A stretch of 64,000 bases of DNA. Origin: Miltoncostaea oceani. GTDB taxonomy: Bacteria; Actinomycetota; Thermoleophilia; Miltoncostaeales; Miltoncostaeaceae. Positions 56,434 to 59,703 of the stretch are shown piece by piece (position 1 is the stretch's first letter; each line of letters begins with the position of its first letter). The notes under the pieces were generated by a model. The model ran no database searches, had not been told where the DNA came from, and was given only the letters and a program-made list of their open reading frames with translations. Position numbers and translations under genes: made by a program. The stretch spans positions 1,178,001 through 1,242,000 of the forward strand of contig NZ_CP064356.1 of assembly GCF_018141545.1 (NCBI RefSeq). Reading direction: 5' to 3'.

Positions 56434-57210
56434 CGGGTCACCTCCGCGAGGGCGTCGAGCACCTCGGTCGACGTGGACCGGCCGAGCGTGCGCACGATGC
56501 GCCCGTCGGCGAGGAAGACGATCCGGTCGGCGATCGTCGCCGCCCGGGCGTCGTGCGTGACCATCACGAGCGTCTGCCCGTGGTCGTCCGCGGAGCGCCG
56601 CAGCAGGTCGAGCACCTCGGCGCTCGCGCGGGAGTCGAGGTTGCCCGTCGGCTCGTCGGCGAACATGACGGTCGGGCGCGAGAGCATCGCCCGGGCGATG
56701 GCCACCCGCTGCTGCTGACCGCCCGACAGCTGCGCCGGACGGTGCCGGCGCCGCTCCGAGAGGCCGACGGAGTCGATCACCTCGTCGAGCCACCGGGGGT
56801 CCGGGCGGCCGCCGGCGATGCGCGTCGGCAACGCGATGTTCTCCTCGGCGGTGAGGGTGGGGAGGAGGTTGAAGAACTGGAAGACGAAGCCGATGTGCCG
56901 GCGGCGGAGCTTCGTGAGGGCGGTGTCGCCCATCCCGGTGATCTCGCGGTCGTCGATCCAGACCTCGCCCTCCGTCGGGCGGTCGAGGCCCGCGAGGATG
57001 TGCATGAGCCGTCGACTTGCCGGAGCCCGAGGGGCCCATCACGGCGACGAGCTCACCACGCTCCACGGCGATCGAGACGCCGTCGAGCGCGCGCACCGCG
57101 GTCTCGCCGGCGCCGTGCAGGCGGACGAGGTCGCGGGCGACGACGACGGGGTGTTCGCGGGTGCCGCCGTCCGCGACCAGGGGGGTCACGAGGGGGGATG
57201 CGGTGGTCAT
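56430..57210 (-). pseudogene. ABC exporter ATPase with a one-base frameshift at Walker A
   Basis: Gene for a LolD/MacB-type ATPase broken by one extra G at about 57009-57010. From the ATG at 57210 (AGGAGG upstream) the frame reads to MGPSGSGKST; the rest continues in another frame from MHILAGLDRPTEGEVWID at 57005 through LSGGQQQRVAIARAM, VMFADEPTGNLDS and VMVTHDA to 56430. Removing one base restores GSGKSTLMHILAGLD. The downstream part alone lacks Walker A. Sequencing error, a recent mutation and translational slippage are all possible; everything else in the gene looks functional. Confidence 0.85.
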
Positions 57211-57249: not shown

Positions 57250-57371
57250 ACGCTACGACCGGCCCGCGCCGCCGCCATCGGCCGCCCTCCCGATCCGGCG
57301 GCGGCGGGGGGATGGTCCCGGCGGCGCCGTGCGCATCCCGCCGGCGCGGCGGCGTCATCCCCGGGGATGAC
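57250..57371 (-). promoter_or_regulatory. conserved promoter/activator module, copy B
   Basis: On the plus strand: ACGCTA at 57250 (minus-strand -10 TAGCGT, 39 bp upstream of the ATPase ATG), GCCATC at 57274, GGGATGG at 57309, CATCCC at 57334 and the palindrome GTCATCCCCGGGGATGAC at 57354, perfect over 22 bp (57352-57373). Offsets are identical to copy A at 45146. Likely target of the response regulator encoded at 58595, driving the exporter. Confidence 0.7.
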
Positions 57372-57415
57372 GCGCCACCGCCCGGACGGGCGACGTCGCC
57401 GCGGACCTCCCGATG

Positions 57416-57421
57416 TACCGT
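57416..57421 (+). promoter_or_regulatory. -10 element TACCGT, kinase gene at 57429
   Basis: TACCGT 7 nt before the ATG. Confidence 0.4.
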
Positions 57422-57428
57422 CCCTCCC

Positions 57429-58598
57429 ATGAGGCTGCTGGGAGGCACCATCGAGCGGGTATGGCTGGACGTCGTGGTCGTCGCGCTGTTCGCCTTCTGG
57501 GTCGGAGAGGTCTTCCTCAGCGAGGACATCGAGGGGGCGCCCGTTCCCCTCATCGCGTTCAGCCTGATCTGGGGGCTGCCCCTGCTGGCGCGGAGGCGTG
57601 CCCCGGTCCTGGCGCCCGCGCTCGTCATCGCCGGGGTGACCGCGCAGGCGCTCATCTGGCCCCGCTCGGTGCCCTACTCGTTCGCGACGTTCATGGTGAT
57701 CGCGATCTCGGCGGGTCTGCTCGGCGCGGCGCTGCGGGGCACCTGGCCGCGGCTGCTGGGCGCGGCGGGCCTGCTGGTGGCGGTGATCGTCGTCGTCTTC
57801 CGCGACCCCGACGGCAGCCCGACCAACCTCCTCTCGGTGATCCCGACCCTGGGCGTCGCCTGGCTCATCGGCCACCTCTACCGCGTCAACGCGCGGCGCA
57901 CCGCCGAGCTGCGCGAGCGCGCCGAGCGCCTCGAGCGCGAACGCGAGACCGAGGCGCGCGCCGCCGTCGCGGAGGAGCGGGCGCGCATCGCCCGCGAGAT
58001 GCACGACGTCGTCGCGCACAGCCTGAGCGTGATGGTCGTGCAGGCCGAGGCGGCGGAGGCGATGCTCGACACCGACCCGGAGCGGGCGCGACGGCCCCTC
58101 GGCGCCGTGCAGGACACCGGCCGCGGGGCGCTCACCGAGCTGCGCCGCATGCTCGGGGTGCTCCGCGAGATGGCCGACGAGGACCCCGCCCTCGCGCCGC
58201 AGCCCGGCCTGGCGGAGCTCGACGCGCTCGTCGGCCAGGTGCGCGCCGCGGGCCTGCCGGTCGAGGTGAGCGTCGCCGGCGACCCGCGCCCCCTGCCCCC
58301 GGGGATCGACCTGTCGGCCTACCGCATCGTGCAGGAGGGGCTGACCAACGCCCTGAAGCACGCGGGGCCGGCGCGCGCCCATGTGGCGCTCGAGTACGGA
58401 CCGCGGGAGCTGCGCCTCGAGGTGAGCGACGACGGTCGCGGGCACGACCCCTCCGACGACGGCCTCGGGCACGGCCTGCTGGGCATGCGGGAGCGGGTCG
58501 CCTGCTACGGCGGCGACCTCCAGGCGGGACCCCGCGACGACGCCGCCGGGTTCGCCCTGCGGGCGCGCCTGCCCCTCGACGCGGGGGCGGCGTCGTGA
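57429..58598 (+). CDS. NarL-family sensor histidine kinase beside ABC exporter
   Basis: A 389-residue kinase. Five or so helices span residues 10-150 with very short external loops, the pattern of intramembrane-sensing kinases that detect envelope damage. A coiled coil (RRTAELRERAERLERERETE) precedes the phospho-acceptor box ARIAREMHDVVAHSLSVM with His192. N box QEGLTNALKHAG and G box GHGLLGMRERVA are intact. The stop overlaps the regulator start as GTGA. It is divergent from the exporter genes, an arrangement typical of BceRS/LiaRS-like stress modules. Confidence 0.92.
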   Translation: MRLLGGTIERVWLDVVVVALFAFWVGEVFLSEDIEGAPVPLIAFSLIWGLPLLARRRAPVLAPALVIAGVTAQALIWPRSVPYSFATFMVIAISAGLLGAALRGTWPRLLGAAGLLVAVIVVVFRDPDGSPTNLLSVIPTLGVAWLIGHLYRVNARRTAELRERAERLERERETEARAAVAEERARIAREMHDVVAHSLSVMVVQAEAAEAMLDTDPERARRPLGAVQDTGRGALTELRRMLGVLREMADEDPALAPQPGLAELDALVGQVRAAGLPVEVSVAGDPRPLPPGIDLSAYRIVQEGLTNALKHAGPARAHVALEYGPRELRLEVSDDGRGHDPSDDGLGHGLLGMRERVACYGGDLQAGPRDDAAGFALRARLPLDAGAAS

Positions 58599-59257
58599 TC
58601 CGGATCCTGATCGCCGACGACCAGGAGCTCGTGCGCGACGGGTTCGGGATGATCCTCGACGCGCAGCCCGACATGGAGGTCGTCGGCGGCGCGCGCGACG
58701 GCCACGAGGCGATCGACATGGCCCGGGCGGAGCGCCCCGACGTGGTGCTGATGGACATCCGGATGCCCGGCCTCGACGGCATCTCCGCGACCCGCCGCCT
58801 GATGGGCGACGGGGACGACGCGCCGCGGGTGCTGATGCTGACCACCTTCGACGGCGACGAGTACGTCTACGAGGCGATGAAGGCCGGCGCCAGCGGGTTC
58901 ATGCTGAAGGACGTCCGCCGCGAGGAGCTGGTCAACGCGGTCCGGGTGGTGGCGGCGGGCGACGCCCTGCTCGCCCCGGCGCTCACCCGCCGCCTGATCG
59001 CCGACTTCGTGCGCCGTCCCCCGCCGGGGGCCGGCCCCGCCGGGGCGATGGCGGAGCTGACCGACCGCGAGCTCGACGTGGTGCGGCTCGTCGCGCGCGG
59101 GCGGTCCAACGCCGAGATCGCCGCGGAGCTGGTGGTCAGCGAGGCGACCGTGAAGACGCACGTGGCGCGCATCCTCGCCAAGCTCGGGTTGCGCGACCGG
59201 GTGCAGGTCGTCGTGGCGGCCTACGAGTCCGGCTTCGTCCAGCCGGGCGAGGGCTGA
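58595..59257 (+). CDS. NarL-family response regulator beside ABC exporter
   Basis: A 220-residue regulator with receiver (IRILIADDQELVRDGFGMIL, phospho-acceptor Asp54 in [32 protein letters not shown]) and LuxR HTH (ELTDRELDVVRLVARGRSNA). It is close in sequence to the regulator at 22447; their HTH helices differ at few positions ([15 protein letters not shown] versus [15 protein letters not shown]), consistent with related binding sites at 57354 and 21866. The gene is followed by two small paralogues in the same transcript. Confidence 0.93.
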   Translation: MIRILIADDQELVRDGFGMILDAQPDMEVVGGARDGHEAIDMARAERPDVVLMDIRMPGLDGISATRRLMGDGDDAPRVLMLTTFDGDEYVYEAMKAGASGFMLKDVRREELVNAVRVVAAGDALLAPALTRRLIADFVRRPPPGAGPAGAMAELTDRELDVVRLVARGRSNAEIAAELVVSEATVKTHVARILAKLGLRDRVQVVVAAYESGFVQPGEG

Positions 59258-59260
59258 GTC

Positions 59261-59476
59261 CTGCCGCCCGGCGTCGGCGACGTCGTCGCGCTGGAGGTGC
59301 TCGGCATGGGCCGGGTCGACGCCGTCGTCGAGGCGGTGGAGGAGCTGGTGCAGGAGGGGGTGCGGGGCCTGGCGTGGCGCGTGCGCCTGCGCCTGCCGGA
59401 CGGCAGCACCGCGAACGGCATCAAACGCGGCAACGCGCGCCTGATGTTCCTCGACCCGCGGCACCGGCTGGCGTGA
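59261..59476 (+). CDS. small beta-rich protein, first of a tandem pair, apparent CTG start
   Basis: A 71-residue protein in the same frame as the upstream regulator and separated from it by the TGA at 59255. It begins PPGVGDVVALEVLGMGRVDA and ends NARLMFLDPRHRLA. No ATG, GTG or TTG precedes the homologous N-terminus; CTG at 59261 stands 7 nt after GAGGG (59249-59253) and is the best start. The later GTG (59297) or ATG (59306) would cut off the region shared with the next gene. Its stop overlaps the next start as GTGA. Family unknown. Confidence 0.5.
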   Translation: MPPGVGDVVALEVLGMGRVDAVVEAVEELVQEGVRGLAWRVRLRLPDGSTANGIKRGNARLMFLDPRHRLA

Positions 59477-59703
59477 CCGGGCCCCCCGCCGTCGGCGCGG
59501 AGCTGCCGGTGGCGGTGCTGGGCGAGGGCACGGTGACGGGGGTGGTGGAGAGGGTCGACGAGGTGCGGCCCATGGGCGGACTGCCCGGCATGGTGTGGCG
59601 CGTCGTCGTGCGCCTGCCGGACGGGGCGGCGCCCGAGGCGATCGTGACGGGCGACGCGCCCCCCGCGTTCCCCGACCCGCGCTACGGCGTGGCGGGCTCG
59701 TGA
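59473..59703 (+). CDS. small beta-rich protein, second of a tandem pair
   Basis: A 76-residue paralogue of the preceding protein. The two align through VGDVVALEVLGMGRV/VGAELPVAVLGEGTV and LAWRVRLRLPDG/MVWRVVVRLPDG. Both look like short beta barrels of the SH3/KOW kind, but I cannot name a family. The GTG start at 59473 overlaps the previous stop. It lies at the end of the kinase/regulator transcript, so a link to that signalling system is plausible. The 3' end overlaps the convergent GNAT gene by 22 nt. Confidence 0.55.
   Translation: MTGPPAVGAELPVAVLGEGTVTGVVERVDEVRPMGGLPGMVWRVVVRLPDGAAPEAIVTGDAPPAFPDPRYGVAGS

What the first reader, a model, noticed from the sequence alone, without database searches (positions are those of the whole stretch)
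59258..59703. Tandem small paralogues after the stress regulator, the first with an apparent CTG start
Two proteins of about 71 and 76 residues share a VG...VLGxG...WRVxxRLPDG pattern and are joined by GTGA overlap. The first lies in frame with the regulator, just after its TGA. The region homologous to its sister has no ATG, GTG or TTG, but CTG at 59261 is spaced 7 nt from GAGGG. Options are a CTG start, translational readthrough of the regulator stop, or a shortened product from 59297. Their position at the end of the kinase/regulator transcript suggests an accessory role.
Basis: partly seen in the sequence, partly recalled or inferred. Interest (0 to 1): 0.6.

Follow-up and report, generated by a model that had tools for sequence, protein, structure and literature searches.

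The report
Small beta-barrel gene started by CTG
A conserved small-protein gene behind a bacterial two-component regulator has lost its normal start codon and most likely starts at the very rare codon CTG, and the same genome shows at least two other convincing CTG starts, so this genus may use CTG more than textbooks allow.

Summary
A (59261-59476) and B (59473-59703) are 45% identical paralogues joined by GTGA, behind a HisKA_3 kinase / NarL-type regulator pair. A has orthologues (75-77% identity) in the three other genomes held for the genus. Two carry ATG exactly where the window has CTG 59261; the third could start at a CTG or a GTG. The codons between CTG and the first usual start (GTG 59297) are conserved as coding sequence and hold beta-strand 1 of a confidently predicted small barrel, so the 59-residue version is unlikely. 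Readthrough is unlikely: the regulator ends at the equivalent place in all four genomes. Here a ~55-codon membrane ORF between regulator and A is missing, which put A's start 3 nt after the regulator's stop. A survey of 534 orthologue pairs found two more convincing CTG starts (RNB exonuclease, Ser/Thr kinase) and one probable (guaA). The protein family is restricted to this bacterial family (9 of 42 genomes) and matches no Pfam or NCBIfam model; the fold is SH3-like, function unknown. The accessory-role idea rests only on genus-level synteny. The gene is a new CTG-start example; recurrent CTG use is the interesting part.

The parts
57312..58598 (+). Histidine kinase ORF (HisKA_3, HATPase_c, DUF7134); exact start not determined; overlaps the regulator by GTGA
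58595..59257 (+). NarL-type response regulator (Response_reg + GerE), GTG start, TGA stop 59255-59257
   Evidence: stop at the equivalent position in G001, G002, G003
59249..59253 (+). GAGGG, candidate Shine-Dalgarno 7 nt before CTG, inside the last codons of the regulator
   Evidence: sequence
59261..59263 (+). CTG, proposed start codon of A; ATG at this codon in G001 and G002
59261..59476 (+). Gene A, 71 residues, predicted five-stranded SH3-like barrel
59297..59299 (+). GTG, first canonical in-frame codon; a start here would remove beta-strand 1
59473..59703 (+). Gene B, 76 residues, paralogue of A, GTG start overlapping the stop of A (GTGA); only in this genome

Best explanation
A is a real, conserved small-protein gene whose ancestral start codon has become CTG in this lineage. 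Ribosomes most likely start it at CTG 59261, helped by the GAGGG inside the end of the regulator gene and by reinitiation right after the regulator's stop (3 nt gap); B is then coupled to A through GTGA. The tight layout arose when an intervening ~55-codon membrane ORF, present in the three other genomes of the genus, was lost. CTG starts are not unique to this gene here: the same genome has at least two other genes whose only workable start is a CTG placed where relatives have GTG. A and B form a five-stranded SH3-like barrel and are probably small cytoplasmic binding proteins made together with the kinase/regulator. Shown: conservation, position of the start, coding constraint, further CTG starts. 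Predicted: the fold. Inferred: actual use of CTG, coupling, role.
For: Orthologues at 75-77% identity with ATG at the CTG codon in two. The 11 codons between CTG and GTG 59297 have pN/pS 0.21-0.41, like the rest of the gene, and GC of 100/42/100% by codon position. Strand 1 of the model (pLDDT 92) is residues 8-13. B shares the same N-terminal PPxVG pattern. Regulator stop position conserved. Other CTG starts in the genome: RNB exonuclease with GTG in G003 and G013, Ser/Thr kinase with GGAGGT 6 nt upstream, CTG also in G003, GTG in G001 and in six loci of five other genomes of the family, probable guaA.
Against: No protein or ribosome data. CUG is a very poor start in E. coli (0.86% of AUG, PMC11497404) and was not enriched in a mycobacterial selection (PMC4633059). 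The initiator tRNA is standard, so no special adaptation is seen. G003 does not settle the start. A nearby ABC-transporter gene has a one-base frame break, so either decay or a sequence error exists close by.
Confidence: 0.76

Rival explanations
1. A is made as a shorter 59-residue protein from GTG 59297.
For: It is the first canonical in-frame start and is what a standard gene caller would choose.
Against: The codons upstream are conserved as coding in all four genomes; the short form lacks strand 1 of the barrel; orthologues with ATG start at 59261.
Confidence: 0.1
2. A is made by readthrough of the regulator's TGA, as a regulator-A fusion.
For: A lies in frame with the regulator, only one codon (GTC) separates the TGA from the CTG.
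Against: The regulator ends at the equivalent position in G001, G002 and G003, where another gene intervenes and A has its own start. The same layout with a GTG in the RNB orthologue of G003 needs no readthrough. The kinase CTG start has no upstream gene in frame.
Confidence: 0.05
3. A lost its start when the upstream ORF was deleted and is now a silent remnant, with B as the working copy.
For: A shifted to a very weak start codon; B is intact with a GTG start.
Against: The A frame is intact, with pN/pS below 1 against every orthologue, and the codon retains NTG with a spaced GAGGG. B is no closer to the orthologues than A is, at 41-53% against 75-77%.
Confidence: 0.06
4. The CTG is a sequence error and the true codon is ATG or GTG.
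For: Only one assembly carries this CTG; a one-base frame break lies nearby.
Against: Substitution errors in a near-complete three-contig assembly are rare (own knowledge); similar CTG starts occur elsewhere, one of them in two independent genomes.
Confidence: 0.03

Closest known systems
Non-canonical (CUG) start codons in bacteria, as summarised in PMC11497404 and counted in PMC5622118; Deinococcus deserti proteogenomics (Baudet et al. 2010, seen only as a reference in PMC3564903)
   Same: A gene whose start position is occupied by CTG, changed from ATG or GTG in relatives, with a spaced Shine-Dalgarno-like sequence.
   Different: At least three firm cases in 534 compared genes of one genome, against 0.024% of annotated starts; one is shared by two species. 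No protein evidence here.
CarD / Mfd RNA-polymerase interaction domain (PF02559)
   Same: Similar small barrel (Z 5.6, 21% identity to Thermus CarD) and a local GDxV...GxGxV resemblance.
   Different: No Pfam match; the profile comparison does not exceed shuffles.
EF-P domain I (PF08207), SH3/KOW-like barrel
   Same: Best structural matches of both models: Z 6.8, rmsd 2.2 and 1.8 over 55 residues.
   Different: No sequence relationship; the conserved KPGKGGAF loop of EF-P is absent; a Z under 8 may mean only a common arrangement.

Membership tests
Gene with a CTG start codon | No in-frame ATG, GTG or TTG that gives the full-length protein | tested here: met
   Only GTC and CTG lie between the TGA and PP; first canonical codon GTG 59297 removes strand 1
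Gene with a CTG start codon | Orthologues start at the same codon with a canonical start | tested here: met
   ATG in G001 and G002; G003 undecided
Gene with a CTG start codon | Sequence from CTG onward is under protein-level constraint | tested here: met
   pN/pS 0.21-0.41 over 11 codons
Gene with a CTG start codon | N-terminal peptide or initiating ribosome at the CTG | not testable with these tools
   Needs proteomics or ribosome profiling
CarD/TRCF interaction domain (PF02559) | Match to the family profile | tested here: not met
   No match at E up to 10 for any of ten members, while the same profile finds CarD and Mfd in this genome
CarD/TRCF interaction domain (PF02559) | Same fold | tested here: inconclusive
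   Z 5.6, rmsd 3.0 over 57 residues
EF-P domain I (PF08207) | Match to the family profile | tested here: not met
   No match; hhalign at the level of shuffles; profile finds EF-P in this genome
EF-P domain I (PF08207) | Same fold | tested here: inconclusive
   Z 6.8, rmsd 2.2 and 1.8 over 55 residues for A and B

The most novel reading that the evidence does not exclude
In this actinobacterial genus CTG is a regular fourth start codon: ATG, GTG and TTG starts switch to CTG at a rate well above the published one, without an unusual initiator tRNA, so start-codon discrimination is relaxed elsewhere (ribosome, IF2/IF3 or context), and standard annotation truncates or misses such genes.
Probability: 0.3. 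Interest if true: 0.68.

Novelty: new member of a known kind. Interest (0 to 1): 0.48.

Why it matters
CUG starts are considered almost unused in bacteria and annotation pipelines rarely call them. Several homologous-position switches to CTG in one genus give natural material to ask what makes CUG work, and show that gene starts in such genomes are likely to be mis-annotated. The small-barrel family is also undescribed.

Tried and rejected
No Pfam, NCBIfam or PDB-sequence match for A or B, only chance-level PHROGs matches, none in viral contigs or plasmids. A relationship to CarD/Mfd RID or EF-P was tested by profile comparison and is not supported by sequence. A mutant initiator tRNA was looked for and rejected. 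The missing membrane ORF was searched for in the window genome and not found; that search had no positive control in that genome. The first version of the start survey timed out; early versions gave many antisense-frame artefacts, removed by requiring sense-strand composition and no overlap. Other apparent CTG/NTG pairs were set aside because a nearby canonical start could serve. Conservation upstream of rplK is not coding. A control clade for the CTG rate was not run, and published rates rest on annotated starts, so the excess is not a controlled figure.

Full report
What was claimed and what is there. The regulator gene ends with TGA at 59255-59257. In the same frame follow GTC, CTG 59261, then PPGVGDVVALEVLGMGRVDAVVEAVEELVQEGVRGLAWRVRLRLPDG..., ending at TGA 59474-59476. 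GAGGG 59249-59253 is 7 nt before the CTG. B begins at GTG 59473 in a GTGA overlap and ends at 59703. A and B are 45% identical over 71 residues with E 2e-11 in the whole genome, where the next match has E 0.5.

Relatives. Protein A has orthologues of 75-77% identity in the three other genomes held for the genus: G001, G002 and G003 (two loci of a named collection, called Thermoleophilia and Actinobacteria MAGs, match the contigs of G002 and G001 in length and position). Members at 30-50% identity occur in five more genomes of the same family. A profile search found the protein in 9 of 42 genomes of the family and in no other of 399 genomes sampled from the class. No Pfam or NCBIfam model matches, and PHROGs and PDB-sequence searches gave only chance-level hits. 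B exists only in the window genome. Its distance to A (45%) and to the orthologues of A (41-53%), and its place in a small tree (weak support), suggest that it is not a recent duplicate.

Start of A. In G001 and G002 the codon aligned with CTG 59261 is ATG (CTG ATG CCC CCG GCC GTC GGC against GTC CTG CCG CCC GGC GTC GGC). In G003 no ATG is present; a CTG overlapping the previous stop, or a GTG seven codons on, could serve. Between CTG and the first canonical start in the window (GTG 59297) the 11 codons PP..ALE show pN/pS of 0.41, 0.41 and 0.21 against the three orthologues (rest of gene 0.36, 0.33, 0.66), and codons 1-12 have GC of 100/42/100% in positions 1/2/3. This stretch looks translated. 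AlphaFold2 on four sequences gives pLDDT 92 and five strands, the first being residues 8-13, which a start at 59297 would remove. The paralogue B has the same N-terminal pattern PPAVG and the same predicted architecture (pLDDT 85).

Why the layout is unusual. In G001, G002 and G003 the order is kinase, regulator, a 53-55 codon ORF with one hydrophobic stretch, A (the G002 contig shows only the last part of the regulator and no kinase). In the window the small ORF is missing (not found anywhere in the genome, a search without positive control) and A follows the regulator's stop by 3 nt. The regulator ends at the equivalent position in all four genomes. So readthrough is not required; termination followed by reinitiation at the CTG is the simplest reading. 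This step is inferred.

Is CTG credible here? In E. coli CUG gives 0.86% of AUG activity, and CUG makes up 0.024% of bacterial starts (PMC11497404); a mycobacterial selection with a Shine-Dalgarno did not enrich CTG (PMC4633059). Reconstruction of starts in 36 genome triplets found 2 AUG-to-CUG switches in 61,358 and 1 GUG-to-CUG in 5,080 (PMC5622118). I therefore looked for other CTG starts in this genome by comparing 1.2 Mb of it with 1.2 Mb of G003: 534 sense-strand orthologue pairs, searched for conserved coding sequence upstream of the first ATG/GTG/TTG. After the flagged cases were read by eye, three genes in the window genome have no usable canonical start and carry CTG at the place of the start, and a fourth is probable.

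The three and the fourth. (1) A itself. (2) An RNB-domain exonuclease, CTG at G000:C1:1086801 on the minus strand, with 29 aligned codons before the first GTG (19 identical residues; third-position changes 16 against 4 and 8); G003 and G013 have GTG at that codon. Like A it starts a few bases after the TGA of the upstream gene. (3) A Ser/Thr protein kinase, CTG at 1527927 on the minus strand, with GGAGGT 6 nt upstream; the first canonical codon lies inside the glycine-rich loop, so an upstream start is unavoidable. G003 also has CTG with its own GGAGGT, G001 has GTG, and six loci in five other genomes of the family have GTG at the same codon. (4) Probable: guaA (named from its sequence), CTG at 1065611, aligned with a TTG in G003 and preceded by a TANNNT box, hence possibly leaderless. 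Each change keeps NTG, as expected for a working start and not for decay. The initiator tRNA is standard (GGGCTCATAACCC), so the cause, if discrimination is relaxed at all, lies elsewhere. Three firm cases in 534 pairs are a lower bound, because a CTG start near another in-frame NTG would not be flagged; but no control clade was run and the published figures depend on annotation, so the excess is suggestive, not measured.

Function. Both models match SH3-like barrels: EF-P domain I (Z 6.8), CarD interaction domain (Z 5.6, model of A), Tudor domains (Z 5-6), all within the range that may mean only a common arrangement. Profile comparison with CarD, Mfd and EF-P domains of the same clade gave nothing above shuffles. 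I file A and B under none of these. The most likely role is a small cytoplasmic binding protein expressed with the kinase/regulator (about 0.3 confidence); outside the genus the homologues are not next to such genes. An ABC transporter lies divergently upstream of the kinase here and in G001 and G003, so the regulator probably controls it; that is inference from arrangement.

Verdict. Observation confirmed; CTG start likely; readthrough and the short form unlikely; accessory role open. As a single gene it is a new example of a known rarity; the recurrence of CTG starts in one genus is what deserves follow-up.

Noticed in passing
L159:6474-7928 (-) (G000:C1:1527927, minus strand); L196, L197, L198-L203, L208: Ser/Thr protein kinase with GGAGGT 6 nt before a CTG start; CTG also in G003, GTG in G001 and in six loci of five other genomes of the family. 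The strongest CTG start seen.
   Followed up: yes
L117:5363-6802 (-) (G000:C1:1086801, minus strand); L213, L217: RNB-domain exonuclease gene with CTG where G003 and G013 have GTG, a few bases after the TGA of the upstream gene.
   Followed up: yes
L116:5612 (+) (G000:C1:1065611); L249: guaA-like gene with CTG aligned to a TTG in G003; a TANNNT box just upstream in both suggests a leaderless transcript.
   Followed up: partly
G000:C1:1264075-1264839 (-): Metallophosphoesterase-like gene with no ATG, GTG, TTG or CTG before conserved coding sequence in either G000 or G003; the start codon is unclear (ACG or ATC possible).
   Followed up: no
window about 57005-57012 (-): The ABC transporter ATPase gene divergent from the kinase has a one-base length difference right after Walker A that breaks the frame; the frame is intact in G001 and G003. 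Real decay or a sequence error.
   Followed up: partly
L044:5475-5642, L045:8696-8863, L046:8104-8265 (-): A 53-55 codon ORF with one predicted hydrophobic stretch, between regulator and A in the three other genomes of the genus, without a Pfam match; missing in the window genome.
   Followed up: partly
L015 (G014), minus-strand frame from 1426: The distant homologue in G014 also lacks ATG, GTG, TTG and CTG over its N-terminal third; the first is a GTG after the glycine-rich part. This genome is a draft.
   Followed up: no
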